The position numbers were made by a program, and so were the translations under genes. A DNA stretch of 64,000 nucleotides from contig JANYCD010000073.1 in the NCBI GenBank assembly GCA_025360425.1, positions 1 through 64,000 of the forward strand, read 5' to 3'. A model generated the notes under the pieces. The model was not told the DNA's origin. It saw nothing but the letters and a program-made list of their open reading frames with translations, and searched no databases. This stretch comes from Sterolibacteriaceae bacterium (GTDB taxonomy: Bacteria > Pseudomonadota > Gammaproteobacteria > Burkholderiales > Rhodocyclaceae). Below are positions 24,894 through 43,094 of this stretch, one piece after another (positions within the stretch are counted from its first letter, which is position 1; each line of letters begins with the position of its first letter).

Positions 24894-25758
24894 GCGCTGC
24901 TTCTCCAAAAATTTCCGTACGATACGGCGACGCCGGATACTGGAATGCAACAGGGCCATCAGCCTCGCCCCAGACGAACTGATGTATATAAGGCGCTGTG
25001 GAGTTTCTGATGTCATCCGCGGTGCCTTCGGCGACGATCTTGCCTTCGGACACGAAATAAACGTAATCGACGATCTTGAGCGACTCTTGTACGTCATGGG
25101 TCACGATGATGGAACTCGCGCCCAGCGCATCGTTCAGGGTGCGGATCAACTGGCCGACGACCGCGAGCGATATCGGATCGAGCCCGGCGAAGGGTTCGTC
25201 ATACATGATCAGCATCGGGTCCAGCGCGATGGCGCGCGCCAGTGCAACGCGGCGCGCCATGCCTCCGGAAAGTTCCGATGGCATCATGTGACTGGCGCCG
25301 CGCAAACCGACCGCGTTGAGCTTCATCATCACCAGATCCTGGATCATGTCTTCCGATAAATCCGTGTGCTCGCGCATCTGAAAGGCCACGTTATCGAACA
25401 CCGTCATGTCGGTGAACAGGGCGCCGAACTGGAACAACATGCCCATGCGGCGACGCATCGAAAAGAGGTCCTGATCGTCAAGTGCACTCACCAGTTGGCC
25501 ATCGACGTGGACTTCGCCCGAAGTGGGTTTCAACTGTCCGCCGATCAAGCGCAATGTGGTTGTCTTGCCGCTACCGCTGATGCCCATGATGGCGACAACC
25601 TTTCCGCGCGGGATCTCCATATTGATCCCGGTAAGGATTGGACGGCTATCGTAGGCGAAGTTGACGTTACTGAGTTTGACCAGAGGGTCGGCGGACACGG
25701 GCTGAAGCTCTCTCTTATATGTGTATTTTTGTGGACGGCGGATTCTAGCAGATGACAT
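24886..25758 (-). CDS. mlaF: Phospholipid ABC transporter ATP-binding protein MlaF
   Basis: [49 protein letters not shown]; start uncertain. Confidence 0.93.
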
Positions 25759-25837
25759 CTGCCTGTCCCACCGCTTGTGGCGGCAAGCAGACAGGTATCA
25801 CGGAATCCTTGCCCGAATCAGGCCTGATGTTTGCGTT

Positions 25838-27307
25838 ATGATGCCCCGCATGCGCCAAACCTCGCTCCCATCCAGCGCCAAACCGGGACTATTGATCGTC
25901 GATGACGATCCGCTGATCGCCGATACTCTGGGCTACGTTCTGGGCGTCGACTTTTCCGTAGTTACTGCGGCCACGCGCACCGAAGGCATCGAAAAGCTGC
26001 GCACGATGATTCCGGCGCCAACATTGGCGCTGATCGATTTGGGCCTGCCGCCGCGACCACACCGCCCCGACGAAGGCTTCGCCCTGATCGGCGAACTACT
26101 GGCGCATTCCCCGGCAATGAAAATCATTGTACTGTCCGGGCAAAACGATGAAAGCAATGCTCGCCACGCACGCACCCTGGGTGCCACCGATTTCGTCGCC
26201 AAACCGGCAGACCCTGCCAAACTAAGGCTTCTGCTACGCAATGCGCTGTCGTTCAGCTCTGCCGAAACCGTCAGCACGGCCAGCACCTCGCACACTTGCC
26301 AGTTGATCGGAGACAGTTTTCCCATTCAGAAGCTGCGCACCCAGATCCGGCAATACGCCGATTCTCCATTTCCGGTGTTGATTGAAGGCGAATCCGGCAG
26401 CGGCAAGGAAATCATCGCGAGTTGCTGCCTGCACCGGATGACCCGTCGGAAAGACAAACCTTATTACGCGCTCAACTGTGCCGCCATCTCTCCCAACCTG
26501 GTCGAACCGACGTTGTTTGGCTACGCGAAAGGTGCTTTCACCGGTGCAACAGGTCAAAAGTCAGGGTATTTCGAAGATGCGTCTGACGGAACCCTGTTTC
26601 TTGATGAAATCGGCGAACTGCCGCTGGAGCTTCAGTCAAAGCTGCTGCGCGTGCTGGAGAACGGCGAATTCCAGCGCGTCGGTGAAACCCAGACGCACAC
26701 CAGTCATGCGCGGGTAATCGCGGCGACCAATCGCGATTTGCGCCGCGAAGTGAGGGAGGGCAGGTTCCGCGCCGACCTCTATCACCGCCTCTCGGTTTTC
26801 ACCATCAGCGTGCCGCCTTTGCGTGAAATGGAGCATGACCGGCTGTTGCTGCTTGAACATTTCAGAGCACAATATTCCGCTCAGTTGGGCGCCGCTCCGT
26901 TCCTCCTCTCGGCGGAGGCAGAGCAACGCTGGCTCAACTACACATTTCCCGGCAATGTCCGGGAATTGAGGAATATCGTGATCCGCCTGACCGCAAAGCA
27001 TCCGGGAGAAACCGTTGATGCCGGGATGCTGGAAGCCGAATTCGACGCTTCGGATTTTGGCGGGGCAGATGCAGATACCTCAACCGGCGGTAACGCCGAT
27101 CTAGCCACAATTGCATTACGCGCGCTTCAGCGCGAACATGCCTTCAACCTTGACGAAACCCTGCGTCGCTGGGAACGGGCCTATATCGACGCGGCACAGC
27201 AACTCTCCAACGGCAACGTCAGCCAGACTGCGAAGCTGCTCGGCGTGAACCGCACCACGCTCTACAATCGCATGGACTCCCTCTCCCGCACCAATACCCA
27301 AGACTGA
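25838..27307 (+). CDS. Sigma-54-dependent response regulator (REC-AAA-Fis)
   Basis: REC LLIVDDDPLIADTLG; GESGSGKE Walker A; GAFTGA loop (GYAKGAFTGATGQKSGYF); C-terminal Fis-like HTH. Confidence 0.95.
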   Translation: MMPRMRQTSLPSSAKPGLLIVDDDPLIADTLGYVLGVDFSVVTAATRTEGIEKLRTMIPAPTLALIDLGLPPRPHRPDEGFALIGELLAHSPAMKIIVLSGQNDESNARHARTLGATDFVAKPADPAKLRLLLRNALSFSSAETVSTASTSHTCQLIGDSFPIQKLRTQIRQYADSPFPVLIEGESGSGKEIIASCCLHRMTRRKDKPYYALNCAAISPNLVEPTLFGYAKGAFTGATGQKSGYFEDASDGTLFLDEIGELPLELQSKLLRVLENGEFQRVGETQTHTSHARVIAATNRDLRREVREGRFRADLYHRLSVFTISVPPLREMEHDRLLLLEHFRAQYSAQLGAAPFLLSAEAEQRWLNYTFPGNVRELRNIVIRLTAKHPGETVDAGMLEAEFDASDFGGADADTSTGGNADLATIALRALQREHAFNLDETLRRWERAYIDAAQQLSNGNVSQTAKLLGVNRTTLYNRMDSLSRTNTQD

Positions 27308-27310
27308 GCC

Positions 27311-28750
27311 ATGTACCTAGAACATTTCGGACTCACCGAACCGCCCTTCCGCATCACGCCGCATACCGACTTCTTTTTCGCCGGTGCGAATCGTGGCGCA
27401 ACGCTTGACGCCCTGATCTACGCAGTCACCCATGACGAAGGCATCGTCAAGATCAGTGGCGAAGTGGGCAGTGGCAAGACCATGTTGTGCCGGGTACTGA
27501 TCGAACGGCTGCCGGCCCAGGTGGCGATCGTCTACCTGTCAAACCCTTCACTGTCTCGCGCCGACATCCTCTATGCCATCGCCGACGAACTCCGCATAGA
27601 ACTACCGGAAAACGCACGCGCCAGTGCCGTGTTGCGCTCGCTACAGGACCACCTCATTCGACTTTACGGCGAAGGGCGGCGGGTCGTGGTGCTGATTGAC
27701 GAAGCCCACGCCATGCCGACCGAAACGCTCGAAGAAATCAGGCTGTTGTCCAATCTGGAGTCCAATCACAGCAAATTGCTGCAGCTTGTGCTGTTCGGCC
27801 AGCCTGAACTGAACGACATCCTGGCCCGCCCCGACATGCGCCAACTGAAAGAGCGCATCACCCACAATTTCCCCCTTGAGCCACTGGTAAGAGACGACAT
27901 TGCCGAATATATGGAGTTTCGCATGCGCGCTGCGGGCTACCGTGGCCCCAATGTCTTCAGCCCGTCTGCAACCAAAATAGTCGCCCAGGCATCGCAAGGT
28001 CTCACCCGGCGTATCAACATGCTGGCCGACAAGGCGCTGCTGGCGGCATTCTCCGAAAATACGCACCTGATCACGGCCAAACATGTCCGCGCCGCTGTCA
28101 AGGATTGCGACTTCAGCAAAGCCACACGCATTGCCAAGCCTTTGCCGTTGCGAATGGCAGCGCTGCTTGCGATTCTTTTCCTTGCGATTGCCTGGTTGGC
28201 GCTCAGTCGCACATGGCTCCCGGGTACGCTGGAAATATCGCCGAACGTCACGGTGGCAGCACCGGTGCCGATTACCACGTCACCCATGGCGCAATCTGTT
28301 CCACCACAGCCCGCATCACCCACCGCGCCGTCTGCTCCAGCCCTACCCACGCCCGTACCAGAAACCATATTGGCTCAGCCCATGCCGGCACCTGCGCCTT
28401 TGCCACCCACGATTGCGGTAGTTGCGCGAACGAAGTCCGGAGTGGAAACTTATCTCGGCGCTGGCAAAGCCTGGCTTGCCAGCGCAGACAACAATCATTG
28501 GTTCCTCCAGCTTGCGACTGAAGCCAACAATGCCGGAACGGTGGAGGCCTACCTACGGATCGTCGAAAAATCTGGGGTCGACATGTCCAATGTCCGCGTC
28601 TATTTGTCCGATTTGAGCGGAACCATGCGCTACGGCATCACTTATGGCGACTATGCGTCTCGCGCATCAGCTACGGCAGCGGCAAGCAGACTACCGGCGA
28701 AAGTGAAGGCGCGCCACCCTTACCCCAGGCAAGTGTCCAGGCTGCGCTAG
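27311..28750 (+). CDS. ExeA/MshM-like AAA ATPase with C-terminal TM and SPOR-like region
   Basis: MYLEHFGLTEPPFRITPHTDFFF, GEVGSGKTMLCRVLIE, VVVLIDEAHAMPTETLEEIRLLSNLE. Confidence 0.9.
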   Translation: MYLEHFGLTEPPFRITPHTDFFFAGANRGATLDALIYAVTHDEGIVKISGEVGSGKTMLCRVLIERLPAQVAIVYLSNPSLSRADILYAIADELRIELPENARASAVLRSLQDHLIRLYGEGRRVVVLIDEAHAMPTETLEEIRLLSNLESNHSKLLQLVLFGQPELNDILARPDMRQLKERITHNFPLEPLVRDDIAEYMEFRMRAAGYRGPNVFSPSATKIVAQASQGLTRRINMLADKALLAAFSENTHLITAKHVRAAVKDCDFSKATRIAKPLPLRMAALLAILFLAIAWLALSRTWLPGTLEISPNVTVAAPVPITTSPMAQSVPPQPASPTAPSAPALPTPVPETILAQPMPAPAPLPPTIAVVARTKSGVETYLGAGKAWLASADNNHWFLQLATEANNAGTVEAYLRIVEKSGVDMSNVRVYLSDLSGTMRYGITYGDYASRASATAAASRLPAKVKARHPYPRQVSRLR

Positions 28751-28847: not shown

Positions 28848-28863
28848 CAAATTGCCCTTTTTT

Positions 28864-30681
28864 ATGAACGAGGTAATTCACGTGCGCCTGCTCACTCTTG
28901 TTTTCGCAGCCTCGTTTATTGGCGCATGCAGCAATGCGCCCATCACTCCCCCATCGAATGGACATATCCGCGCCGAAAACATTCCGGACGCCGATACGGC
29001 TTCAATCCCCAAGCCGGTGCAGAGCGACATTTCCCTGCCGAGACCCAAACCCGCCGCCAAAGTCGAGACGTATAGCGTTGTTGTCAGCAACGTGAAGGCG
29101 CAAGACCTGCTGTTCGCCCTGGCGCGCGACGCCAAACTCAATATTGATGTCCACCCGGGTATCAACGGCACGGTCTCGCTGAACGCCATTGACCAAACCC
29201 TGCAACAACTGTTGGCCCGTATCGCCAAGCAAGTGGATATGCGCTGGGAACTGGATGGGCCGAATCTGATCGTGATGCCGGATACGCCTTTCCTGCGCAA
29301 CTACAAGATCGATTACGTCAATCTAGCGCGCGATGTGACCAGTTCTGTCGCCATCAATACCCAGATCGCATCCACCAGTGCCGCAGCAACCACTGGTGGC
29401 AGTGGATCATCCGGCGCCGGCAACAATTCTTCCACTACGGTCACCAGTACAGCCAAGAATAATTTCTGGGGTTCCCTGGAAAAGAACCTCAAGGACATTC
29501 TGCGGGAAACCGACAAGATTCTGCCGGAGGGGTCCAGCGATACCGTGATCGAAAAAAATGACCAGCAATCCACCAGCGGTACAGGAGCAACGTCCAATCG
29601 TGGGGGGGGGCAAGGCAATCTCGCGGGAAGTCCAAACCCTGCCTCGATATCGACGGAAGGGACGACGGTAATCAAGCGGACGACTTTTCGTGAAGCCGCG
29701 TCTGTCATCGTCAATTCCGAAGCCGGTGTGGTGGTGGTACGCGCCACTTCACGGCAGCATGAAAAAGTTCAGGAATATCTTGATCTCGTCATGTCAACCG
29801 CCAAGCGGCAGGTCATGATCGAGGCGACCATTGCCGAAGTTACGCTGAGCGACGGCTATCAACAGGGCATTAATTGGCAAAGCCTGCGCAATCTGCGCAA
29901 AGGGCCTCCGACCGCCGGTTTTTCAGAAATTCAGAATCCGTCGGGGCCGACGCTGACCAGTGGTGGCACACCTTTTCTGCTGAACTATGTCGCACCGGGG
30001 CTGGGCATTTCGGCCACCATTTCCCTGCTGGAGTCTTTTGGCAACGTAAAAGTAATTTCCAGTCCGCGGATCAGCGTCCTCAATAACCAGACCGCATTGC
30101 TCAAGGTCGTCAATAACATTGTCTATTTCACCATCAAATCGGATACCACCAACAGTACGACCGGCCCTTCACAAACCACCGTAACGACGACCCCTCAATC
30201 GGTCGCGGTCGGATTGGTGATGAGTGTTACGCCACAAATCAGTGACACCGACGTGATCCTGCTCAATGTCCGACCCACGATTTCCAGCGTCATCGACTTT
30301 ATTAATGATCCGAATCCCAGCATTCCCTCTGGAATTTCCAATAGGGTTCCGGAAATTCAAACGCGTGAAATGGAGTCGGTGCTGCGCCTGACCAACGGGG
30401 AAATTGCGGTGATGGGCGGACTGATGAAAGACGAGCTAAATCAGGCCACCGATGCGGTACCGGGTCTCTCCAAATTGCCTGTGCTGGGAAATATATTTAC
30501 GCAACGTAACGACAAGCGCACAAAAACCGAATTGGTCATATTTCTGCGGCCGACGGTGATTAAAGATATCAGCATCAATGGTGACTTCCGCGCGCTGCGC
30601 GGACAATTGCCGAACAACGACTTTTTTGCCAACAACCCTGGCCCGCAACAGCAACAAATCGGCGGCGGAGGCAGCAAGTAG
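28864..30681 (+). CDS. mshL: Pilus/type II secretin, MshL-like lipoprotein
   Basis: Lipobox SFIGACSN; secretin core VISSPRISVLNNQTALLKVVNNIVYFTI and GEIAVMGGLMKDE; follows MshM-like ATPase. Confidence 0.9.
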   Translation: MNEVIHVRLLTLVFAASFIGACSNAPITPPSNGHIRAENIPDADTASIPKPVQSDISLPRPKPAAKVETYSVVVSNVKAQDLLFALARDAKLNIDVHPGINGTVSLNAIDQTLQQLLARIAKQVDMRWELDGPNLIVMPDTPFLRNYKIDYVNLARDVTSSVAINTQIASTSAAATTGGSGSSGAGNNSSTTVTSTAKNNFWGSLEKNLKDILRETDKILPEGSSDTVIEKNDQQSTSGTGATSNRGGGQGNLAGSPNPASISTEGTTVIKRTTFREAASVIVNSEAGVVVVRATSRQHEKVQEYLDLVMSTAKRQVMIEATIAEVTLSDGYQQGINWQSLRNLRKGPPTAGFSEIQNPSGPTLTSGGTPFLLNYVAPGLGISATISLLESFGNVKVISSPRISVLNNQTALLKVVNNIVYFTIKSDTTNSTTGPSQTTVTTTPQSVAVGLVMSVTPQISDTDVILLNVRPTISSVIDFINDPNPSIPSGISNRVPEIQTREMESVLRLTNGEIAVMGGLMKDELNQATDAVPGLSKLPVLGNIFTQRNDKRTKTELVIFLRPTVIKDISINGDFRALRGQLPNNDFFANNPGPQQQQIGGGGSK

Positions 30682-32000
30682 TGAGTTTGCTGATGGATGC
30701 GTTGAAGAAGGCGGAACTGGCCAAGCGCCAGTCTCCAAAGGATCCATCTGAACCATCAATCTCGCGCGCTTCCCAAGAACCCCTGGCATTGACACCGTTG
30801 GGGGTCAAACCCGAGCCATTTGGCGGTGAGCAATCAATTCCACCGTCTGTCGTGGAGCCAGTCGGCAATCTCCCTGAATTGCCATCGACGCTCGAATTAC
30901 TCGATCAGGAATTCATGGACGCGGCGCTCGTCTTGGCGCAACGCAAACCCGAGAACACGCAAGAGCTCTCTGCAGGTCGGGTAGGCGCTTTTTCTTCGCC
31001 GCCGATTATCCCTGCCCCAGTTATTGACACGAGCGCGCAACAGCGGGCTGCCGCTGAAACCCGGCGCGAACGCGAGTCTGTGCAAAACCTGTTCGAGGCG
31101 AAGCAGGCACCGGCATCTTCACGCAAGACATTCGCCATCGTTGGCGTGCTTTCCATGTTTGTCGTGGCCGCCATCGGCATCTATTTCTGGTTGCAGTTAC
31201 AACCCAAATCAAGCCTGATGCCGTCTGGTGGCGCCGTGTTGCCAATAACGGCGTCTCCCCACCCCATGATTCCCTCTCCGCCGGTGCCGGTGGCCGAACC
31301 CGTAACGAACATCCCGGCCGTGCCGGCCGCCGCATCCCCGAATGAAGCACAAAGTAGCCAACCACAGCCGGCGCCAGCCCGACTAACAGCGCCGCTACCC
31401 GAGATCCCGATCCGCGTGACCACATCGAAGTTGCAAGTCGACCCGACGGTTGACGCCGCTTTCAATGCCCTGCAAAACGGCGATCTGGGTGCCGCCAAAG
31501 CCGCCTACGAGAAATCGCTGAAGAACGACCCGAAAAATGCCGATACGCTGCATGGCCTCGCTGCGATCCAGCTTCGCCTGGGCAAACCGGAACTGGCGCA
31601 AGACTATTATCTGCGCGCGCTGGAGGCAGACCCCAAGGATGCTCTGGCGCAGGCCAGTCTGATCAGCATGAGCAGCCAAATTGATCCCGTGCAATCAGAA
31701 AGCCGGCTCAAGCTGCTGCTCACCACACAGGCTGACTCGCCGTTCCTGCATTTCTATCTCGGCAATCTCTACGCACGCCAGAATCGCTGGTCCGAAGCTC
31801 AACAGGACTATTTCAAAGCCATGGCGGGCGAACCGGACAATCCGGATTACCTGTTCAATCTTGCGGTCAGTCTGGATCAATTGCACCAGGCCAAACTTGC
31901 CGCGCAGTACTATGCCCAGGCACTGTCCGCAGCCGACAAACGATCTGCCGGTTTTGATAAACAACAGGTTTCCGACCGACTGAAAAAGTTGCAGCCGTAA
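30681..32000 (+). CDS. MshN/GspB-like TPR membrane protein
   Basis: SLLMDALKKAELAKRQ N-terminus, single TM, C-terminal TPRs; GTG start overlaps secretin stop. Confidence 0.85.
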   Translation: MSLLMDALKKAELAKRQSPKDPSEPSISRASQEPLALTPLGVKPEPFGGEQSIPPSVVEPVGNLPELPSTLELLDQEFMDAALVLAQRKPENTQELSAGRVGAFSSPPIIPAPVIDTSAQQRAAAETRRERESVQNLFEAKQAPASSRKTFAIVGVLSMFVVAAIGIYFWLQLQPKSSLMPSGGAVLPITASPHPMIPSPPVPVAEPVTNIPAVPAAASPNEAQSSQPQPAPARLTAPLPEIPIRVTTSKLQVDPTVDAAFNALQNGDLGAAKAAYEKSLKNDPKNADTLHGLAAIQLRLGKPELAQDYYLRALEADPKDALAQASLISMSSQIDPVQSESRLKLLLTTQADSPFLHFYLGNLYARQNRWSEAQQDYFKAMAGEPDNPDYLFNLAVSLDQLHQAKLAAQYYAQALSAADKRSAGFDKQQVSDRLKKLQP

Positions 32001-32046
32001 TCTTTCACTTTCCGGCACGTGCGCAATGCTGGATAATCTTCGGCAC

Positions 32047-33753
32047 ATGAACGCCCCAAATATCAAACGTCGGCCCATTGGACAAGTCCTGATCGCGCAA
32101 GGTGTGATCAGCGAAGACCAATTGCGTATCGCGTTGCTGGAACAGATGAAGGTGAACCAGCCGGTCGGCAAACTGCTGGTTAGCCTCGGTTTCGTTTCAG
32201 AAGCCACGCTGCGCGATGCCTTGGGCGAGTCCCTTGGCAGCAAGTCGGTCGACCTGACCCGTGCAGTAATTGATGCCGGCGCATTGAAAATGGTGCCGCG
32301 CGAACTCGCCAAGCGCCATCGTATCTTGCCGCTCGACTACGACACGACCAACCAAAAACTCACCATCGCCGTTTCCGACCCGAACGATATCATCGCGCTC
32401 GACAAGTTGCGCGCGCTGGTTCCCCATGAGCTCAGGATAGAAACACTGCTGGCCGGCGAAACTGAAATTGCGCGCGCCATCGATCAGTACTACGGTCACG
32501 AACTCTCGATCGACGGCATTCTGCACGAAATCGAGACCGGTGAAATCGACTATCGCTCACTGTCCACGAGCATGGATGAATACAGCCAGCCGGTGGTGAG
32601 GCTGGTGGACGCATTGCTGACCGATGCCGTCAAACGCGAATCATCCGACATTCACTTTGAACCCGAAGCCAGCTTCCTGCGCATCCGTTATCGCATCGAC
32701 GGCATCCTGCGTCAGATCAGGTCATTGCACAAATCCTACTGGGCAGCCATGGCAGTGCGACTGAAGGTGGTTGCCGGGATGAACATTGCCGAGACGCGTG
32801 CCCCGCAGGATGGTCGCATCTCCCTGGTCATCAGCGGCCGGCCGGTGGATTTCCGGGTCTCGGCGCAACCGACAATACATGGCGAGAACATCGTCTTGCG
32901 CATCCTTGACCGACAAAAAAGCATCGCCACGCTGGACAAGTTGGGGCTCGATGACTTTCAGCTGGACCTGCTCAAGCTGATGATTGCCCGACCCGAAGGC
33001 ATCATCATGGTGACCGGCCCAACCGGCAGCGGCAAAACAACAACGCTCTATTCGGTACTAAGTCATGTCAATGACGAGGGGATCAACATCATGACCCTCG
33101 AAGACCCGGTCGAATACCCGATGGCAATGATTCGGCAAACCTCGGTGTCTGAGACGGCAAAGCTGGATTTTGCCAGCGGCATCCGCTCCATGATGCGTCA
33201 GGATCCGGACGTGATCCTGGTTGGTGAAATCCGCGACGCGGATACCGCTGAAATGGCGTTCCGTGCCGCGATGACCGGGCATCAGGTTTTCTCGACCCTG
33301 CACACCAACTCGGCAATCGGCGCCATCCCGCGCCTACAGGACATTGGCGTTCTGCCGGACATCATGGCCGGCAATATCATTGGCATCATCGCCCAGCGTC
33401 TGGTTCGCCGCCTGTGCACTCACTGCCGCAAGCCCCACCCGGCTGAGGCCCACGAACGCCACCTGCTCAAGCTGGAGGACCAGCAATCTCCACCCATCCT
33501 CTACCGCGCCACCGGGTGCGACCAATGCGATTTTCAAGGCTACCGTGGCCGGCTTACCATCATGGAACTGCTGCGGCTTGACGGCGACCTCGACGAACTG
33601 ATTGCGCGTCGTGCCACCGCCCGCGAAATTCGCAATGCCGCAATCGCCAAGGGCTTTCGCCCGCTGGCGGAGGATGGTCTGAGGCGAGTGCTCGACGGAT
33701 CGACATCGCTCGAAGAGATCGCCCGGGTCATCGACCTTACGGAGCGGATGTAA
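32047..33753 (+). CDS. mshE: Type IV pilus assembly ATPase, MshE/PilB/GspE family
   Basis: [15 protein letters not shown]; Asp/His boxes; MshEN-like N-terminus RRPIGQVLIAQGVISEDQLRIALLEQ. Confidence 0.93.
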   Translation: MNAPNIKRRPIGQVLIAQGVISEDQLRIALLEQMKVNQPVGKLLVSLGFVSEATLRDALGESLGSKSVDLTRAVIDAGALKMVPRELAKRHRILPLDYDTTNQKLTIAVSDPNDIIALDKLRALVPHELRIETLLAGETEIARAIDQYYGHELSIDGILHEIETGEIDYRSLSTSMDEYSQPVVRLVDALLTDAVKRESSDIHFEPEASFLRIRYRIDGILRQIRSLHKSYWAAMAVRLKVVAGMNIAETRAPQDGRISLVISGRPVDFRVSAQPTIHGENIVLRILDRQKSIATLDKLGLDDFQLDLLKLMIARPEGIIMVTGPTGSGKTTTLYSVLSHVNDEGINIMTLEDPVEYPMAMIRQTSVSETAKLDFASGIRSMMRQDPDVILVGEIRDADTAEMAFRAAMTGHQVFSTLHTNSAIGAIPRLQDIGVLPDIMAGNIIGIIAQRLVRRLCTHCRKPHPAEAHERHLLKLEDQQSPPILYRATGCDQCDFQGYRGRLTIMELLRLDGDLDELIARRATAREIRNAAIAKGFRPLAEDGLRRVLDGSTSLEEIARVIDLTERM

Positions 33754-33765
33754 ACGACTTTATCC

Positions 33766-34968
33766 ATGGCGCTCTATGCATACAAGGCGATCAATCCATC
33801 GGGGCGCACAGTCCTGGGTCGGCTCGACGCCATCAATCTGGTGGACCTCGAAATGCGCCTCAAGCGCATGGAGCTCGACTTTGTCAATGGCAATACCGTC
33901 AAGGAAAGCAACCTGTTCGGTCAGAGCAAGATCCCGCGCCGGGAGATCATCAATTTCTGCTTTCATCTTGAGCAATTAACCCGGGCCGGTGTACCGATCA
34001 TCGAGGGATTAGCCGACCTGCGCGACAGCCTTGAAACGCCGCGCTTTCGCGAAGTGCTGGCGGGCATGGTGGAGAGCATCGAGGGTGGTAAAACCCTGTC
34101 GCAAGCGATGGACGAGTACCCCAGAGTCTTCGATGAAGTCTTTACCAGCCTGATACGCGCAGGCGAAGAGACCGGAAACCTGTCCGGCGTTTTGAAGAAT
34201 CTGAATGAATCGCTCAGGTGGCAGGATGAATTGGCGGCACAAACCAAGAAGCTGATCATGTATCCGGCATTCATGGGCGTGGTGGTGGTTGGCGTGGTGT
34301 TTTTCATGATGATTTACCTGGTTCCAAAGATGGTGAGCTTCATCAAAAACATGGGGCAACAGATCCCGCTACAGACCAAGATACTGATCGCCACTTCCAA
34401 TTTTTTCGTCAACTACTGGTACATCGTTCTACTGCTGCCGATAGTGATCGCCATCGGGATCAACTTCGCGATTCGCACCAATCCCAAGGCGCATCATCGC
34501 TTTGACGGATTCAAGTTACAGATGCCCATGGTTGGCGAAATCCTGCGCAAGATCATTCTTTCCCGCTTCGCCAGCGTATTCGCCATGATGTACGCCTCGG
34601 GAATTTCGATACTTGACTCGATCAAAACCACCGAGAAGGTGGTCGGCAATTCGATCATCCGCGAAGGACTCGAGCAGGCCGGTCAGTTGATCGCCGATGG
34701 TCTCAACGTGACCGCTGCGTTCGAGCGCGTTGGATTGTTTCCGCCACTGGTTATCCGCATGCTGCGCGTCGGAGAGAACACCGGTGGGCTGGATACCGCT
34801 CTAATGAATGTCAGCTATTTCTACAATCGCGACGTAAAGGAATCCATCGAGCGCGTGCAGGCAATGATTGAACCGATGATGACCATCATCGTCGGCATGA
34901 TTTTGGGCTGGGTGATGCTTGCTGTTCTTGGTCCAATTTACGACACCATTTCAAAAATGAAAATTTGA
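33766..34968 (+). CDS. mshG: Pilus inner-membrane platform protein, GspF/MshG/PilC family
   Basis: FCFHLEQLTRAGVPIIEGLADLRDS; duplicated GspF domains with TMs. Confidence 0.93.
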   Translation: MALYAYKAINPSGRTVLGRLDAINLVDLEMRLKRMELDFVNGNTVKESNLFGQSKIPRREIINFCFHLEQLTRAGVPIIEGLADLRDSLETPRFREVLAGMVESIEGGKTLSQAMDEYPRVFDEVFTSLIRAGEETGNLSGVLKNLNESLRWQDELAAQTKKLIMYPAFMGVVVVGVVFFMMIYLVPKMVSFIKNMGQQIPLQTKILIATSNFFVNYWYIVLLLPIVIAIGINFAIRTNPKAHHRFDGFKLQMPMVGEILRKIILSRFASVFAMMYASGISILDSIKTTEKVVGNSIIREGLEQAGQLIADGLNVTAAFERVGLFPPLVIRMLRVGENTGGLDTALMNVSYFYNRDVKESIERVQAMIEPMMTIIVGMILGWVMLAVLGPIYDTISKMKI

Positions 34969-34978
34969 CGCTCCGAAA

Positions 34979-36541
34979 ATGTCAAAACACCGCGCCCTCT
35001 TCCTTGACGCCAACCACATCACTGCCTATTCGTGGCAGGGCGGAAACCTGCGCGAAGAAGGCACCTTCGACGGTGACGCGCCAGGGCTGGAGAACTTCGT
35101 CGCCTATCTGCGTCTCCAGCGCTCCTCGGTCTTCTACCTGCTCGCCGATGTCGCCGAGGAAGGCTTCCAGATCGAAGACATCCCCTATGTATCGGGTAAC
35201 GACCGCAAGGCTTTGCTGGAGCGCCGTCTTGGTCAATATTTCTATGGCACACCGCTCACTGCGGCAATCTCGCTGGGACGCGGAAAAACCGGGCGGCGCG
35301 ACGAAAAAATGCTGTTTACGGCGCTGACCCGACCGCAGTATTTCGAACCTTGGTTTGCCGCAATGCGGCAGGCAGAGACCCAACTGGCCGGTCTTTTTTC
35401 GGCGCCCATGGTGGTCAATTCATTGTTCAAGACACTGAACAAAAAAGACGGGCCAACCCTGGTACTGACATTGTGCAAAGCCGGTTTGCGGCAGTCTTTT
35501 TTCGAAGGCGATCAGTTGCGGTTCTCGCGTTTGACGCCGCTGGTCACCAGCTCCCTGGAAGAATATTCACTCACCTGCGCAGTCGAGGCCGCAAAAATCT
35601 ATCAATACCTCGTCGGCCAACGCCAGATCGAGCGCGGCAAAAAACTGGAAACCTTGATCCTTGCCCATCCGGCGGAAACCGCCAGTTTTCGCCAGAAGTG
35701 TCGCGATACGGACGAACTCCACTTTGATTACATCGATCTGATCGAGCGCGGATCCAAACTCGGTCTCAAATCCCAGAGTTCAGATTCGCACGCCGACACG
35801 CTGTTGCTGCATTTGTTGCTGCAAAAAACACCCCCCTACCAGTTCGCTCCGACCCCGGAGCGAAAACTCTATCGTCTTTGGCAATGGCGCTTCGGGCTCA
35901 ATGCCGCCGCCGCGCTCATTCTCGTTGTTTGCCTGCTGTTCGCCACCAAAAACTTTTTGCAAACCTACACCATGGGGCAGGAAGTGGAATCGGTCAAACT
36001 CGATGCCGCCCTGACCAAGCAACGCTATGAGGCCATGCTCAAAAAACTTCCGGCCATGCCGGTCAGCGCCGACCAGTTGCGTGCCATGGTGGATCGTTTT
36101 AACACTTTGCAAAAAAATTCTCCGCCCATCACGATGACGCTCAACCAATTGAGTCAGGCACTGAGTATTTCGCCACAGGTAGAGCTGGATCGAATCGACT
36201 GGCTCCCCTCCTCAAACCCGGCCGACTCGGTGAACCCCGATACGGGCGCGGGTGCGAAAACCGCTCCCAATGCCACGCTTGCGAGCGGTAGCGCAAGCTA
36301 TTACGCCATCGTCGAGATCCAGGCACATTTGCCCGCAGCCGTGGCCAACGACAATCGCGCCATTCTTGAAATCGTTGACCGCTTTGTCGACACGCTGAAA
36401 AAAAATCAGGGCATGACCGTCACCATCCTGCACATGCCATTCGACCTGGCGTCGGGCAAAACCATCAAGAGTTCGGCGCAGACAGGGGTCACTCTGGTTG
36501 AACTGCCGAAGTTTTCGTTGCGCTTGGTGCAGGGACTCTGA
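34979..36541 (+). CDS. MshI-like protein: actin-like/GspL-type N-terminal half fused to TM + PilN-like half
   Basis: Position after mshG; cytoplasmic half, single TM (about aa 300-325), coiled PilN-like periplasmic part. Confidence 0.65.
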   Translation: MSKHRALFLDANHITAYSWQGGNLREEGTFDGDAPGLENFVAYLRLQRSSVFYLLADVAEEGFQIEDIPYVSGNDRKALLERRLGQYFYGTPLTAAISLGRGKTGRRDEKMLFTALTRPQYFEPWFAAMRQAETQLAGLFSAPMVVNSLFKTLNKKDGPTLVLTLCKAGLRQSFFEGDQLRFSRLTPLVTSSLEEYSLTCAVEAAKIYQYLVGQRQIERGKKLETLILAHPAETASFRQKCRDTDELHFDYIDLIERGSKLGLKSQSSDSHADTLLLHLLLQKTPPYQFAPTPERKLYRLWQWRFGLNAAAALILVVCLLFATKNFLQTYTMGQEVESVKLDAALTKQRYEAMLKKLPAMPVSADQLRAMVDRFNTLQKNSPPITMTLNQLSQALSISPQVELDRIDWLPSSNPADSVNPDTGAGAKTAPNATLASGSASYYAIVEIQAHLPAAVANDNRAILEIVDRFVDTLKKNQGMTVTILHMPFDLASGKTIKSSAQTGVTLVELPKFSLRLVQGL

Positions 36542-36543
36542 TC

Positions 36544-37158
36544 GTGGCGACATCGCAATCCACCGCCCTGAAACGCTTGCAGTGGAATATTGCCCTATTG
36601 CTTTTCCTTTCCCTGGTGGGCGCCGGTGCCGTGCTGGCTTCGCTCAAATTTCGTGACGTCGCCGACAAATCACTAAAACAAGCAACCGCGATTCAACGCG
36701 AAATCAAGGCCAAGCTGGCCCGCGCCAACGATGAAGAGATCGAGTTACGCGAAAAAATACTGCGTTATAACGCGATGGATAAAAAAGGCATTCTCGGCGA
36801 AGAACATCGCCTGGAGTGGATCGAGCAAATCAAAAAAGTGGAAGAGAAGCATAAGTTGCTCGAAATTCAATACGAGTTGGCGCCGCAAAAGCCACTCGAT
36901 GCGAAAGTCTTGCCGTTAACAGGCGGTGACTTTGAGGTATTGTCGAGTCCCATGAGCCTGGACATGCCGCTACTCCATGAGTTGGACCTGTTGAATTTTC
37001 TGGCTGATCTTAGCAACGAGGTCACCGCCTTTCTGCGGCTGAGAAGCTGTTCCATCGAACGCACTTCGCCGCAAGCCGCAACCAAAGGCGCCATCGCCGT
37101 TGCCCAGCTCAGAGCCCGCTGCCAACTCGACTGGATCACCATTCGGGAGAGGAGATGA
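36544..37158 (+). CDS. MshJ/PilO-like protein
   Basis: Single N-terminal TM, coiled-coil, position in operon. Confidence 0.6.
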   Translation: MATSQSTALKRLQWNIALLLFLSLVGAGAVLASLKFRDVADKSLKQATAIQREIKAKLARANDEEIELREKILRYNAMDKKGILGEEHRLEWIEQIKKVEEKHKLLEIQYELAPQKPLDAKVLPLTGGDFEVLSSPMSLDMPLLHELDLLNFLADLSNEVTAFLRLRSCSIERTSPQAATKGAIAVAQLRARCQLDWITIRERR

Positions 37159-37607
37159 AGATCGCGGCATTCAGGTTTTTCATTCTCTTCCTGACCTGCG
37201 CCACCCCCCTGGCATATGCGGAAGAGCCACTTGGGCGGCTATTCTTCAGCCCGGAGAAACGCGCTGTACTCGAACGGCAACGGCAACTCAACGTTCAGGT
37301 TCAGGAAACACAAACACTGGAAGGCGCCACCATGCATCTTGATGGTGTCATTCAGCGCAGTGGTGGCAAAAAAACCGTATGGATCAACGGCCAACCGCAA
37401 AACGACAATGCAACGCCCCTCGGTGTTGCCGCGAAAATAGCGCCGGGCGACCCCGGGCGCGCCTCCCTGAGCGCCGAGGGCGAATCTCCCGTCAATCTGA
37501 AAGTTGGAGAAACCGTCAATCGCGCCACGCGTGAAAAAGACAATGGCATCGATGGCGGAAAAATTGTCGTCGGCAAGCCCGCCGCGCGCGCCCGGGATGC
37601 CCGCTAG
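37155..37607 (+). CDS. MshK/PilP-like secreted protein
   Basis: Signal peptide, GVIQRSGGKKTVWINGQPQND (MshK/GspB-type motif). Confidence 0.6.
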   Translation: MKIAAFRFFILFLTCATPLAYAEEPLGRLFFSPEKRAVLERQRQLNVQVQETQTLEGATMHLDGVIQRSGGKKTVWINGQPQNDNATPLGVAAKIAPGDPGRASLSAEGESPVNLKVGETVNRATREKDNGIDGGKIVVGKPAARARDAR

Positions 37608-40600
37608 CCGCAGTCATCAGCGCGGTTTCGCGCTGATGATCATGATCGTGTTGCTGGTCATGGGTGCGCTTTACGGCGTAGTCAGTCAGCTCAGCCTGAT
37701 AGGCGCGCGTGCCGGGCGGACGCAGGGAACCCAAGCCTCATTGTTGCAAGCCAAGGAAGCCCTGATCGGTTTTGCTACCGCCTATCGCGACAGCCATCTC
37801 GATCAGGTGTTTGGGTACCTGCCCTGCCCCGACACCACAGGAGATGGCGTGAGCGATGCCTGCGATGTCACGGGAACCACGGTGGTTGGCCTGTTGCCTT
37901 ACCGAACACTTGGCTTGCAGGATCTGCGTGACAGCGAGGGCGTCTGCTTGTGGTATGTCGTCTCGGGGAACTTCAAAGACAACCCCAAAGCTACGCCAAT
38001 GAATTGGGATACCCAAGGCAACATCCTGCTTCAGGATGTCAACGGTACTACCGTGTTTGCGCCCGACGACGCCAATGGCGGAGCCGCAGCGGTCATTGTC
38101 GCGACGGGCCTGCCCATTGCCGGACAAAACCGCACGCCTGCCGCTGCCACTGTTTGCGGCACCGTTCCTACCGAAGTCGCTGCCTATCTTGATGGGGGTT
38201 ATGCCTTTCCGAGCGCAGGCACGGTCACCTTGAGAGCAGGCAGTAGCGGCAGCACCACTAACAACGATCTCATGCTGGCCGTGACGCCGCAGGAAATTTT
38301 TAGCCGCATCATCCCGCGCGTCGATTTCAGAAACGCATCGAGCGCTACCCCGCCGGGACAAATCAACGCCCTGTCGGACAACATCAAATTCAGCATCGAG
38401 AAACAGATTCAAAGCAATCTGGTCGCAGGCACAGCACCATCGGGCATTGCCCTGCCGCGTCAAACCGGTTATTCGCAATTCGCCGGCAAATGGGTTGGTG
38501 ATTTGGCGACCGCGTTGGCGCTCACGAGCACCAGTGACATCAATTATCTCGCCAACTGGCGCAACCAATATCGTTATGCGGTATGCAGCAACCTGAGCAC
38601 GCCCTGCCTCAACATTGCCGGCACCAGTTGTCGCGCGGCGCTGCTATTGGGTGGCACGTCGACGACCGGTGGGCCACGCACCACGGTCCAAAATGTATCC
38701 ACCACTGCGGCCCTGGATGATTTTTTCGAAGCTGGCAAGGGGCGCGAACTGCTCAATAGCAGCAGCATGACCTTCAGCGGCAATACCAGCTATCAATCGC
38801 CGACGGCCAGCACGACAGAGGATACGGCGCTCTGCCTCGTCCCCGGCGCTTTCAAGTCATTCGCCCAGGACATCGCCGAGTTTTCGTCCGGTTTGACCCA
38901 ATCCGTCACTGGCGGTAACGCGCTTGCCAACGTCGACACCAGCGCCAAAACGGTGACTTTTGGCAGTAGCGGCGGCACCGCCGGCGTGGCTTGCGTCTGG
39001 AATGCGAATGCGCTGCCGATGAACACCCTGCTGCGGCTTTACTTTCGCCTCAACTTTGCCGCCAAGGGCAACGGCGTTGCCCTTGCCCTGGCGGATGGCG
39101 CGACCAACCTGGCACCCAACATCGGTGGGCGCACCCAGATCATGTGCGGCGCCTCGGGGAGTGACACCTTGGGTTATTCGGGAATACCTCCGGCCGATGC
39201 CAGCGGAACACCACCGGCAGGCACCACGGTCGGAATCAAGAGTCCAAAGCTTGGCATCGAATTCGACACCCGTTACGACAGCAGCCGCAACGACCCGTAT
39301 ACAGATCACACGGCTTTTCTCTACTGGGGTAACGCCGCCGATAACGTGGCTGGTGGAAGTGGCGCCGATGACAACACCCACTATCTGGGCACCGGCGGCG
39401 CAGCGATCACGGCCGCCACCTGGTCAAGCAGTGTGGCCACGGTGACCACAGCGTCCGTCCATGGCTTCGTTGGCAGCATAGCCATTACTGCCGCCACTTG
39501 GGCAGGGAATGTAGGCACGGTGACCACAGCGTCCGTCCATGGCTTCTCGGTCGACGATGTGGTGCATGTATCCGGCATCACACCAAGCGCCTACAACGGT
39601 ACTTATACGATATTGACTTCCAGTAGCACGCAATTCACCTATACCTTGACTGCGCCGAGCAACCCCGGCAGTCTTACCATCCCCGGTTCGGTCGGCGAAG
39701 TGGTAATCGTATCTGGCATCACTCCGAACGCGTACAACGGCACCTATACGGTAGTGTCTTCAACCAGTACTCAATTCACTTATGCTTTGCCCAGCGATCC
39801 CGGCGGCTCCGCTGCCTCCGGAATGGTTAAACCTGGCTCTGCCGGGCCTGCACCACGTAACCCGAGGATCGCGACAGCACTTGGAAGCACCACAGTTGCC
39901 TCGCCTTGTGGTTTCCCCAGTCCCGCATGTCCCGTTTGGTCACCCATCAGCTTTGGTCTAGTGACCATCAATACGGCGAAGGCACATAATCTGTCATCGG
40001 GTCAGAAAGTGTATGTTTCCGGAATTTCTCCCGCCGGATACAACGGTGTCTTCACGGTTCTTGCCAGTGGTCTCACCGCAACGCGATTCCGCTATTTGCT
40101 CTCGACTAATCCCGGGGGTTATGTTTCCGGTGGCAGCATTCCCAACAAGGAAGCCGAAATATCCGCGCTTAGCTGGTCATCCAACACCGCGCATGCAGGA
40201 ACAGCGCCGGACAATCACGGATTCAGCAGCGGTCAAGTGATCACCATTGCCGGCGTTACCCCCGGCGGTTACAACACCAGCGGATCCGCGACCTACCTCT
40301 CTTCGAAATTTTTTGACTATCCACTGGCGACCGATCCTGCCGGCGGTTTTTCGACCGAAACCCCGGGCGGAATGTCAATTCTCAAAAATTCCACTACGCC
40401 ACCGCATAATTATCTGAAGTACACCAGCATCCCCCCGACAACTTCCATCTACGTCCGCCTCGATATTTCCCGCAGCTACGACAGCGTTCACCACATCGCG
40501 ATACTCAATACCAAGGCCTATATCGGCGACACCTTCGGCACGTTGCCCGATACCTGCACCAGTGCTTCCAGCACTTCCGAGTTTCAGGATTTGAGTCAAG

Positions 40601-40986
40601 ACCTGGCCGTTTTGTGTCCGTTCCGGACCGTCACGCTGCAACAGGACTCGATCCCCATCAGCGCCATCGCAACCCTCTCTGCCGCCACCTGGTCGTTGTC
40701 TACCGTCAGTGTCACCACCGCTGCCGCCCACCGTTTGGTCAACGGCGCAAGCATTACCATTTCTGGTGCCAGCCCTGCCGGCTACAACGGCACGTATACT
40801 GTCGCGGTGACTGGTGCCAATACCTTCACGTACAGTCTGCCCGGCAACCCGGGAAGTTATGTATCTGGCGGCGATATTCAACCGTTATCCACCATTTATC
40901 TCGGATTCACGAATGCCCGCAGCAGCACCAACATTATTGAGAATCAATCCGTGACCATTGATCAATTATTGTTGAGAAGCCAATGA
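37597..40986 (+). CDS. Very large prepilin-like protein (1129 aa from the ATG at 37597) with lectin-like C-terminal domain and YNGTYTV-type repeats; putative pilus tip adhesin
   Basis: Prepilin-like QRGFALMIMIVLLVMGALYGVV (no Glu at +5); GNGVALALAD ... LGIEFDTRYDSSRNDPYTDHTAFLYWG; repeats VSGITPSAYNGTYT. Confidence 0.75.
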   Translation: MPASRSHQRGFALMIMIVLLVMGALYGVVSQLSLIGARAGRTQGTQASLLQAKEALIGFATAYRDSHLDQVFGYLPCPDTTGDGVSDACDVTGTTVVGLLPYRTLGLQDLRDSEGVCLWYVVSGNFKDNPKATPMNWDTQGNILLQDVNGTTVFAPDDANGGAAAVIVATGLPIAGQNRTPAAATVCGTVPTEVAAYLDGGYAFPSAGTVTLRAGSSGSTTNNDLMLAVTPQEIFSRIIPRVDFRNASSATPPGQINALSDNIKFSIEKQIQSNLVAGTAPSGIALPRQTGYSQFAGKWVGDLATALALTSTSDINYLANWRNQYRYAVCSNLSTPCLNIAGTSCRAALLLGGTSTTGGPRTTVQNVSTTAALDDFFEAGKGRELLNSSSMTFSGNTSYQSPTASTTEDTALCLVPGAFKSFAQDIAEFSSGLTQSVTGGNALANVDTSAKTVTFGSSGGTAGVACVWNANALPMNTLLRLYFRLNFAAKGNGVALALADGATNLAPNIGGRTQIMCGASGSDTLGYSGIPPADASGTPPAGTTVGIKSPKLGIEFDTRYDSSRNDPYTDHTAFLYWGNAADNVAGGSGADDNTHYLGTGGAAITAATWSSSVATVTTASVHGFVGSIAITAATWAGNVGTVTTASVHGFSVDDVVHVSGITPSAYNGTYTILTSSSTQFTYTLTAPSNPGSLTIPGSVGEVVIVSGITPNAYNGTYTVVSSTSTQFTYALPSDPGGSAASGMVKPGSAGPAPRNPRIATALGSTTVASPCGFPSPACPVWSPISFGLVTINTAKAHNLSSGQKVYVSGISPAGYNGVFTVLASGLTATRFRYLLSTNPGGYVSGGSIPNKEAEISALSWSSNTAHAGTAPDNHGFSSGQVITIAGVTPGGYNTSGSATYLSSKFFDYPLATDPAGGFSTETPGGMSILKNSTTPPHNYLKYTSIPPTTSIYVRLDISRSYDSVHHIAILNTKAYIGDTFGTLPDTCTSASSTSEFQDLSQDLAVLCPFRTVTLQQDSIPISAIATLSAATWSLSTVSVTTAAAHRLVNGASITISGASPAGYNGTYTVAVTGANTFTYSLPGNPGSYVSGGDIQPLSTIYLGFTNARSSTNIIENQSVTIDQLLLRSQ
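39438..39546 (+). repeat. 31-bp exact direct repeat, 78-bp period, inside the tip-pilin ORF
   Basis: CACGGTGACCACAGCGTCCGTCCATGGCTTC at 39438-39468 and 39516-39546. Confidence 0.95.
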
Positions 40987-41738
40987 GACAAAACGCTTTC
41001 GCGCGCGGCTTCACGCTAACCGAACTTGCGATAGTCCTGATCATCGTCGGGCTATTGCTCGGCAGCCTGTTTGTTCCCCTGGCGACGCAAACCGAGATTC
41101 GCTATCGCTCCGATACCGACAAGGCATTGGTGGATATCCGCGAGGCTTTGCTGGGCTTTGCCATTGCCAATGGGCGCTTGCCCTGCCCGGCGCGGGCAAA
41201 CGCCGTCCCCGGTGATGCGGACGCGGGATTGGAACCCACGCCTATCGTTGCAGCAGGCTGCGCCAATCTGGCCGGGGTGCTGCCCTGGGCCACGCTGGGC
41301 GTCCCCGAAGGCGATCCGTGGGGCAATCGCTATACCTACCGGATCAGCCAGGAGTTCACCCGACAGCCGCCGCAAGTCGGATTCAATGGCGGAGCCACTT
41401 GTCCCGCTCAAACCGCAAACGCAGGTTTTGCGCTGTGTTCCCAGGGCGACATGACGGTGCTCAATACCGGGGGTGGTAGCACCGTTTCGAGTACCGTCCC
41501 TGCCGTTGTGCTATCTCACGGCAAAAATGGCAACGGCGCCTACAACACGCAGGGCAACCAAATGGCGGTTGGCGCCGATGCGGACGAACTCGACAACCAA
41601 CTCACGGGCGGCGGAACCAACACGGCCAATCTAGTGTTCATCAGCAAAACGCCCACCCCCACATTCGACGACATCGTGATCTGGATTTCTCCCAATATTC
41701 TGTTCAACCGCATGGTTTCCGCCGGCAAGCTGCCTTGA
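40983..41738 (+). CDS. Type IV prepilin-like protein
   Basis: RGFTLTELAIVLIIVGLLLG prepilin signal with Glu5; overlaps upstream ORF by 4 bp. Confidence 0.9.
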   Translation: MRQNAFARGFTLTELAIVLIIVGLLLGSLFVPLATQTEIRYRSDTDKALVDIREALLGFAIANGRLPCPARANAVPGDADAGLEPTPIVAAGCANLAGVLPWATLGVPEGDPWGNRYTYRISQEFTRQPPQVGFNGGATCPAQTANAGFALCSQGDMTVLNTGGGSTVSSTVPAVVLSHGKNGNGAYNTQGNQMAVGADADELDNQLTGGGTNTANLVFISKTPTPTFDDIVIWISPNILFNRMVSAGKLP

Positions 41739-41810: not shown

Positions 41811-43094
41811 ATGAAACGTTCCAACTCCGATACTTCGCGCCCCACGTTTGCCGAACGCCTGAGAACCGCCGGCATCGAGCCGACTGACGACGAACAGTTG
41901 CGACTCAACAAGTCGTTGCTGGTCTTCGCCACAGGCATCGTCAGCGTAACCTCGATGGTCTGGCTCAATATCTATTGGGTGCTCGGTCCGCAGTTGTCAT
42001 CCACCTACCCGTTCGCTTTCAATCTGCTGCTGGTGGGCAATCTGTTAATTTATATCAGGAGCGGAAATTTCGAATTTTTCCGCGTCAGCCAGTTGGGGTT
42101 GCTGCTGTTCATACCATTCGCGATGCAATGGAGCATCGGCACCTTCATCGACGCCAGCGGTGTGGTTCTTTGGGGCTTGCTGGCGCCGGTCGGCGCAATT
42201 CTGATGCTCGGCCCGCGCGGATCGCTGGTATGGTTCCTGATCTGGGTCTTTTTCACCGCGCTGTCGGGGCTGGTCGACTACTATTTGATCGGCCTCGCCA
42301 AACCAACGGTGCCGCTGCGCACCAGCGTTGTTTTTTTCGCGCTCAACTTCATGGCGGTATCGAGCATGATTTACATGCTGTTACGCCACTCGATCCTTGA
42401 GCAGCAAAAAATACGGGGCAAACTGGAAGACGCCTACACGATGCTGACGGTGGAACAGGCAAGGTCGGAGCGTCTGTTGCTCAACATCCTGCCAGGTCCG
42501 GTCGCCGAGCGGCTGAAAAACTCGGACCAGACGATTGCCGATGGATTTGCCGATGTGACCGTGATGTTTGCTGACATCGTGAATTTCACCCAGGTGGCCG
42601 AAGGCATGTCGCCGTCCCAAGTATTCGCCATGCTCAACCGGATTTTCTCGGCCTTCGACGAACTGGCCGAGCAGTTCGGTCTCGACAAAATCAAGACCAT
42701 CGGTGATGCTTACATGGTGGCTGGCGGTATTGGCGGCAGTGCTGAGAACTATAGCGCGGCCATTGCCGACATGGCGGTCGCCATGCGCGACCTTCTACGC
42801 AATGATTTCGCGGTGAATTCGTCGCACCTCGAAGTACGGATCGGCATGGGCACGGGGCCGGTAGTGGCCGGCGTGGTCGGCAAGAAAAAGTTTATCTATG
42901 ACTTATGGGGTGACACGGTCAACATTGCCAGCCGCATCACTTCGGAAGGTATACCCAGCATGATCCAGACCGACGTGACGACATTCAAGCGTTTGAACGG
43001 GGATTTCGAATTTGACGAACCCCAGGTCATTTATCTCAAGGGCAAAGGTGAGATGACGGTATATCGGTTGGTTGGCCGCAAGGCGCTGGGGTAG
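41811..43094 (+). CDS. Membrane-bound class III adenylate cyclase
   Basis: Six-TM-like N-terminus; VMFADIVNFTQVAE, IKTIGDAYMVAGG, YDLWGDTVNIASRI (Lys/Asp adenine-specificity residues). Confidence 0.92.
   Translation: MKRSNSDTSRPTFAERLRTAGIEPTDDEQLRLNKSLLVFATGIVSVTSMVWLNIYWVLGPQLSSTYPFAFNLLLVGNLLIYIRSGNFEFFRVSQLGLLLFIPFAMQWSIGTFIDASGVVLWGLLAPVGAILMLGPRGSLVWFLIWVFFTALSGLVDYYLIGLAKPTVPLRTSVVFFALNFMAVSSMIYMLLRHSILEQQKIRGKLEDAYTMLTVEQARSERLLLNILPGPVAERLKNSDQTIADGFADVTVMFADIVNFTQVAEGMSPSQVFAMLNRIFSAFDELAEQFGLDKIKTIGDAYMVAGGIGGSAENYSAAIADMAVAMRDLLRNDFAVNSSHLEVRIGMGTGPVVAGVVGKKKFIYDLWGDTVNIASRITSEGIPSMIQTDVTTFKRLNGDFEFDEPQVIYLKGKGEMTVYRLVGRKALG

What the first reader, a model, noticed from the sequence alone, without database searches (positions are those of the whole stretch)
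39400..40885. Lectin-like domain apparently split by two insertions of YNGTYTV-type repeats
Five units of the type xHGFSxGDxVxxSGITPxxYNGTYTVxxxxxTxFTYxLxxxPGxxxSGG (cores near 39591, 39731, 40038, 40269 and 40781) interrupt what reads as a single lectin-like domain. One block (about 39400-40376) lies between ...HTAFLYWGN...HYLG and GGMSILKNS...YVRLDISRSYD. A second unit (about 40660-40885) lies between FRTVTLQQDSIPI and STIYLGFTNARSS. Similar repeats are familiar from phage tail proteins (family recognition by eye). Repeats grafted into lectin loops would be a diversifiable binding surface.
Basis: partly seen in the sequence, partly recalled or inferred. Interest (0 to 1): 0.8.

Follow-up and report, generated by a model that had tools for sequence, protein, structure and literature searches.

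The report
Pilus-tip lectin with phage-type loop inserts
A sugar-binding protein that probably sits at the tip of a bacterial pilus has small domains, of a kind found in phage tail proteins, spliced into the loops of its lectin domain, and its relatives carry such inserts in at least five different loops.

Summary
The 37597-40986 gene is a large minor type IV pilin (MSHA-like operon, Rhodocyclaceae MAG). Its C-terminal legume-type (ConA-like) lectin is interrupted by five FCCH-like units. A profile built only from insert-free relatives matches the window protein in three abutting pieces (model 6-214, 214-295, 295-320), so one domain is split twice. The natural empty-site homolog L057 folds as a lectin (pTM 0.85; best PDB hit peanut lectin, E 3e-10). 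The first block is really two insertions around an ancestral loop motif, and one unit is nested inside another: relative L051 has the outer unit uninterrupted, and the nested unit is a copy of its host. Relatives carry FCCH units in other loops, or an unrelated phage tail-fibre repeat in a fifth loop. Elsewhere in related genomes FCCH units occurred only in this gene, PilY1-type tip adhesins and prophage tail proteins. Units evolve only slightly faster than the core, so diversification looks like gain, loss and swapping of cassettes, not hypermutation. Most likely function: a tip adhesin with extra binding or spacer modules. Sugar binding and the role of the repeats are untested. A direct model of the window protein was too weak to show reassembly.

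The parts
37597..40986 (+). Gene for the large minor pilin with lectin domain (probable ATG start at 37597; open frame from 37504)
   Evidence: ORF; homologs in 54 of 81 related genomes; start chosen by leader peptide MPASRSHQRG
37597..37689 (+). Prepilin-type leader and hydrophobic segment, MPASRSHQRG|FALMIMIVLLVMGALYGVVSQ; position 5 is Ile, not Glu
   Evidence: no recognisable pilin N-terminus among the homologs has Glu5
37690..38808 (+). Pilin moiety, conserved region with motifs GYLPCPD, CLWY, NWDT
   Evidence: alignment; tree
38809..39393 (+). Lectin segment 1, with ADG, LGYSG, IEFD, NDP and H motifs (putative metal and sugar site)
   Evidence: model 6-214; invariant residues
39394..39828 (+). 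Insertion B1: FCCH-like unit (39394-39468 + 39688-39828) containing a nested second unit (39469-39687)
   Evidence: L051 has the uninterrupted outer unit
39829..39924 (+). Ancestral loop-B stretch containing PRNP, kept between the two insertions
   Evidence: alignment (PxNP in insert-free homologs)
39925..40368 (+). Insertion B2: two FCCH-like units (39928-40128 and 40159-40353)
40369..40656 (+). Lectin segment 2 (IYVRLDISRSYD ... QQDSIP)
   Evidence: model 214-295; strands
40657..40887 (+). Insertion D: one FCCH-like unit (40675-40866), closest outside this family to units of Klebsiella and Yersinia phages
40888..40983 (+). Lectin segment 3 (STIYLGFTNARSS...)
   Evidence: model 295-320, weak
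28852..37607 (+). Upstream MSHA-like pilus machinery genes (MshL, TPR, GspE/MshE, GspF/MshG, MshI/J/K-like positions)
   Evidence: MshL above NCBIfam cut-off; order conserved in relatives
40983..41738 (+). Next pilin gene, with prepilin motif and Glu5
   Evidence: conserved neighbour

Best explanation
This is a modular minor pilin of an MSHA-like type IV pilus. Prepilin processing and assembly place it most likely at the pilus tip, where it displays a legume-type lectin. Small FCCH-like beta domains have been inserted into loops of that lectin, at three points in this protein and once inside another unit, without disrupting its core or its metal-site residues. The lectin probably binds glycans with bound Ca/Mn. 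The inserted units most likely add contact surface or reach to the tip adhesin. Across the family the lectin and its repeat cargo are gained, lost and exchanged as cassettes. Shown by sequence: gene context, fold family, insertion points, nesting, empty sites and cassette exchange. Inferred: tip location, glycan binding, and the role of the units.
For: Lectin: Pfam Lectin_legB above cut-off in the insert-free homolog L057; AF2 pLDDT 81.5 and pTM 0.85; Foldseek best hit peanut lectin 2pel, E 3.3e-10, then other legume and L-type lectins. Split: insert-free HMM matches in abutting pieces at the same points (214, 295, and 132 in relatives with a site-A insert) in independent genomes. Units: Pfam E1_FCCH 3e-5 in the window protein (below cut-off) and 1.7e-21 in relative L054; Foldseek Uba1/Uba6 probability 1.00 over about 90 residues; phage virion PHROGs and phage genomes, phage fibres and baseplates. 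Pilus: MshL secretin above cut-off, conserved operon; hydrophobic or small residue at position 5 throughout, which PMC5207764 proposes as a signature of first (tip) subunits. Precedent for lectin-bearing modular pilins at the tip: PMC9934059 and PMC8179133.
Against: AF2 of the window's own lectin with inserts was weak (pLDDT 65, pTM 0.56), and its match to legume lectins across the insert had rmsd of about 24 A, so that model does not show the two lectin halves packed together. The final lectin segment matches the insert-free HMM only weakly (E 0.007). E1_FCCH is below Pfam's cut-off in the window protein. The genome is an 84% complete MAG. No binding data exist.
Confidence: 0.72

Rival explanations
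1. The units are passive spacers or tolerated cargo: the loops far from the sugar site simply accept small autonomous domains, with no binding role.
For: Units evolve at almost the same rate as the core. Unrelated repeat families and Cys-rich stretches sit in the loops of relatives. By strand order, sites A, B and D appear to lie at the pole opposite the metal loop (inference).
Against: The same units recur specifically in another class of pilus-tip adhesin (PilY1) and in phage tail proteins, which is not expected of random cargo. Units are kept at the same loop and position between the window protein and L051.
Confidence: 0.35
2. The repeats lie between two independent domains, and there is no single interrupted lectin.
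For: The direct AF2 model does not pack the halves together.
Against: Insert-free homologs have the contiguous domain, and the HMM pieces abut at the insertion points in seven proteins. L057 folds as one sandwich.
Confidence: 0.05
3. The locus is a hypervariable diversification cassette, for example a diversity-generating retroelement target or a phase-variable repeat array.
For: Unit number and insertion sites differ between genera. One unit is a recent nested copy.
Against: The only reverse transcriptase match is at the edge of another contig. Units are not hypervariable, and the two-unit arrays are constant across the L092/L098 group.
Confidence: 0.06
4. The inserts are an anti-phage or phage-derived adaptation: tip decoration that masks the pilus from pilus-binding phages, or capture of phage receptor-binding parts.
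For: Unit families are shared with phage tail and virion proteins, and the site-D unit clusters with Klebsiella and Yersinia phage units (95/86).
Against: Short units give a poorly resolved tree. The direction of transfer is not shown, and no phage of these hosts was examined.
Confidence: 0.12

Closest known systems
PilC of Streptococcus sanguinis (modular pilin with ConA-like lectin; PMC9934059, PDB 7oa8)
   Same: Type IV pilin N-terminus fused to a ConA-like lectin, predicted at the pilus tip; 7oa8 is among the Foldseek hits (E 3e-3)
   Different: PilC is about 53 kDa, has Glu5 and an Ig module; loop inserts are not described for it in the passages read. The lectin here is closer to legume lectins, and its loops carry inserted domains.
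GspK / XcpX family minor pseudopilins
   Same: Large, hydrophobic residue 5 instead of Glu, expected at the filament tip (PMC5207764)
   Different: No Pfam or NCBIfam GspK match; the extra domain is a C-terminal lectin, not a helical insert in the pilin fold
MshQ, putative MSHA pilus adhesin of Vibrio
   Same: Putative adhesin encoded in an MSHA-type pilus locus (PMC7096442)
   Different: Homology not tested here. The protein here carries its own pilin N-terminus.
E1_FCCH (PF16190) domain, in Uba1/Uba6 and phage virion proteins
   Same: Sequence profile, and Foldseek probability 1.00 to the Uba1/Uba6 chain over about 90 residues
   Different: Here it is a repeated module inside a presumably extracellular lectin; the window protein scores below Pfam's cut-off
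PilY1/PilC tip adhesins with FCCH-like units (L144-L148, L173, L175-L177, L179)
   Same: Pilus-tip adhesins carrying the same unit, in L147 near the start of the PilY1 propeller match region
   Different: Carrier is a vWA / beta-propeller protein, not a pilin-lectin

Membership tests
Modular type IV pilin | Prepilin-type leader ending in Gly followed by about 21 hydrophobic residues | tested here: met
   MPASRSHQRG|FALMIMIVLLVMGALYGVVSQ, conserved across homologs; no Pfam N_methyl hit in this protein
Modular type IV pilin | Glu5 | tested here: not met
   Ile5; hydrophobic or small residue throughout the family. Also absent in the GspK family (PMC5207764), so not required of tip subunits.
Modular type IV pilin | Extra functional domain and pilus-assembly operon | tested here: met
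   Lectin; MshL, MshE and MshG neighbours, conserved order
L-type (legume) lectin | Fold and sequence family | tested here: met
   L057 Pfam PF00139 above cut-off; Foldseek 2pel E 3e-10; window protein tied to it by HMM
L-type (legume) lectin | Metal and sugar-site residues (Asp of ADG, Gly-rich turn, Glu and Asp of VEFD, NDP, His) | tested here: met
   Invariant in A2 and A3, present in the window protein; assignment of roles rests on knowledge of legume lectins
L-type (legume) lectin | Binds glycans | not testable with these tools
   Needs purified protein
E1_FCCH domain (PF16190) | Pfam gathering score 29.5 bits | tested here: not met
   Window protein 24.4 bits; homologous units in L054 reach 76.4
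E1_FCCH domain (PF16190) | FCCH-like fold | tested here: inconclusive
   Foldseek hits to Uba1/Uba6 at probability 1.00 but E from about 0.008 upward, from a model with parts of low confidence
GspK family | Large, no Glu5 | tested here: met
GspK family | GspK sequence family | tested here: not met
   No Pfam or NCBIfam match
Diversity-generating retroelement target | Adjacent reverse transcriptase and hypervariable residues | tested here: not met
   Only RVT match is on another contig's edge; units not hypervariable

The most novel reading that the evidence does not exclude
Type IV pilus tips draw on a pool of small domains shared with phage tails. At least two unrelated phage-virion repeat families have been inserted repeatedly into at least five loops of a pilus-tip lectin, and one of them also into PilY1 adhesins. 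The loaded lectins then move as cassettes between pilin scaffolds, so that adhesive tips diversify by loop grafting and module swapping.
Probability: 0.4. Interest if true: 0.8.

Novelty: new variant of a known kind. Interest (0 to 1): 0.62.

Why it matters
Modular pilins are known to carry a domain at the end of the pilin. Here a further level is seen: small domains grafted into the loops of that domain, even into each other, with natural insert-free relatives as controls. No paper on such inserts was found in the library searched. The recurrence of one unit family in lectin pilins, PilY1 adhesins and phage tail proteins links pilus tips and phage tails through a shared module, and gives a testable system for how surface adhesins change their reach or specificity without losing the core fold.

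Tried and rejected
AF2 of the window lectin with inserts was too weak to show packing. Pfam E1_FCCH was too insensitive as a genome search query, so an alignment of the units was used instead. PDB sequence searches gave nothing. L051/L061, sisters in the pilin tree with and without inserts, was set aside as a clean gain/loss pair because their lectins are far apart (38% against 57% for the pilin moiety), which suggests replacement of the lectin. A foreign-composition argument was not usable: G+C of the inserts is close to that of the gene.

Full report
Observation. The ORF 37504-40986 (+), probable start ATG 37597, holds the repeats at the stated coordinates. A unit HMM finds five units. The gene sits in an MSHA-like pilus operon: secretin MshL (above NCBIfam cut-off), TPR protein, GspE/MshE ATPase with a c-di-GMP-binding motif, GspF/MshG, three further genes in MshI/J/K positions, this gene, then another pilin. 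The same order is found around most homologs with enough flank. The host is a MAG-like assembly (89 contigs, 84% complete) whose relatives are mainly Rhodocyclaceae and related betaproteobacteria.

One domain, split. Relatives provide natural empty sites. Insert-free homologs (L056, L057, L059, L061, L062) align across the window protein's lectin with long gaps only at the repeats. An HMM built from six insert-free homologs alone (these and L060) matches the window protein in three abutting pieces: model 6-214, 214-295 and 295-320, the last weak at E 0.007. It matches relatives L051-L055 and L058 in pieces broken at the same points, with a further break near 132 where L054 and L055 carry an insert. 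The insert-free L057 lectin scores above Pfam's cut-off for Lectin_legB, is predicted with pLDDT 81.5 and pTM 0.85, and matches peanut lectin best (E 3.3e-10), followed by other legume and L-type lectins; S. sanguinis PilC is further down. The Glu/Asp, NDP and His positions typical of the legume-lectin metal site are invariant or nearly so and intact in the window protein. The direct model of the window lectin with inserts was weak and does not show the halves packed; this gap is stated, not filled.

Anatomy of the inserts. Block one is two insertions, B1 (39394-39828) and B2 (39925-40368), on either side of the ancestral PRNP loop motif. In B1 a complete 73-aa unit (39469-39687) sits inside another unit. 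The two flanking halves join to a normal unit; L051 carries that outer unit uninterrupted; the inner unit is 83% identical at DNA level to the outer one over the first 75 nt and groups with it at 99/97. It is therefore probably a copy of its host made after the split from L051. The other units of the window protein pair with L051 units of the same position: B2-1 96/85, B2-2 98/91, D 97/71. The D unit is in block two (40657-40887), and with its L051 counterpart groups with phage units (95/86); the unit tree has few columns and many deeper forks are unresolved.

What the units are. They match Pfam E1_FCCH (3e-5 in the window protein, below cut-off; 1.7e-21 in L054). Foldseek gives Uba1/Uba6 at probability 1.00, with E-values only from about 0.008, and phage fibres, baseplate and virion proteins. 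PHROGs and phage genomes agree.

Other loops, other repeats. Among about 43 distinct homologs: FCCH units in loop A in two (L054, L055); in loop B in seven (window protein included); in loop D in two (window, L051); after the following strand in the L114/L092/L098 group, always two units. In L043, L045, L072, L078, L094, L108, L097, L119 and L122 a different repeat (DGVxL...GDRVLV...NGVY) lies between the VRVE and VW strands; it matches phage tail-fibre and head-decoration families (E 7e-45 and 5e-52 for L072) and phage genomes. By strand order in the L057 model, sites A, B and D should lie at the pole away from the metal loop; this is inference, as no coordinates were available.

Rate and mode. 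Between related proteins, units are slightly less identical than the lectin core (window/L051 55.5 against 59.6%; other pairs 1-9 points lower). There is no sign of hypermutation, and the one reverse transcriptase match is on another contig. Cassette exchange is visible: L047 and L092 share 52% in the pilin moiety but 88-94% in the lectin, and L122 is closest to L090 in the pilin but to L119 in the lectin.

Wider pattern. Searching about 60 relatives and 250 genomes of the order with a unit alignment, the genes found were this pilin-lectin, PilY1-type tip adhesins, and two prophage tail proteins. PilY1 identity is by Pfam in L147, L148 and L176, weakly by NCBIfam in L144 and L175, and by similarity to these in the rest. 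In L147 the unit sits next to the propeller match, between blade-like stretches (by eye).

Mechanism. Most likely the protein is processed as a prepilin and placed at the tip. No homolog with a recognisable pilin N-terminus has Glu5, a feature proposed to mark first subunits (PMC5207764), and lectin-bearing modular pilins are known and are modelled at the tip (PMC9934059, PMC8179133). The lectin presumably binds glycans; the units add surface or reach. The steps after gene structure and fold are inference.

Verdict. A real and unusual architecture: a new variant of the modular pilin, not a new kind of system.

Noticed in passing
L144, L145, L146, L147, L148, L173, L175, L176, L177, L179: PilY1/PilC-type pilus-tip adhesins of related genomes carry the same FCCH-like units, in L147 beside the propeller match and in L148, L176 and L179 in the N-terminal part
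   Followed up: partly
L047 (G037), L092, L122, L090, L119: Lectin and pilin moieties have different closest relatives, with a step in identity at their junction: cassette exchange
   Followed up: partly
L072:9290-10330, L119:9260-9940 and relatives: A second, unrelated phage tail-fibre/head-decoration repeat inserted in another loop of the same lectin
   Followed up: partly
L115, L072 and other relatives, loop before the final GFT strand: Cys-rich CxxGQxCGxDNxCY stretches, sometimes repeated, resembling EB modules (Pfam E 0.9 only)
   Followed up: no
L174, L178: FCCH-like units in prophage tail proteins (a tail tube protein and a tail-assembly-like protein)
   Followed up: partly
window 41811-43094: Gene for a probable class III nucleotide cyclase just downstream of the pilus genes (identified by eye), conserved next to the operon in several relatives
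   Followed up: no
window 25721-28750: Sigma-54-type response regulator and an ATPase resembling the PEP-CTERM/XrtA-associated ATPase (below cut-off) upstream of the secretin gene
   Followed up: no
G000:C54:37-507 (L133): Reverse transcriptase fragment at a contig edge, elsewhere in the genome
   Followed up: no
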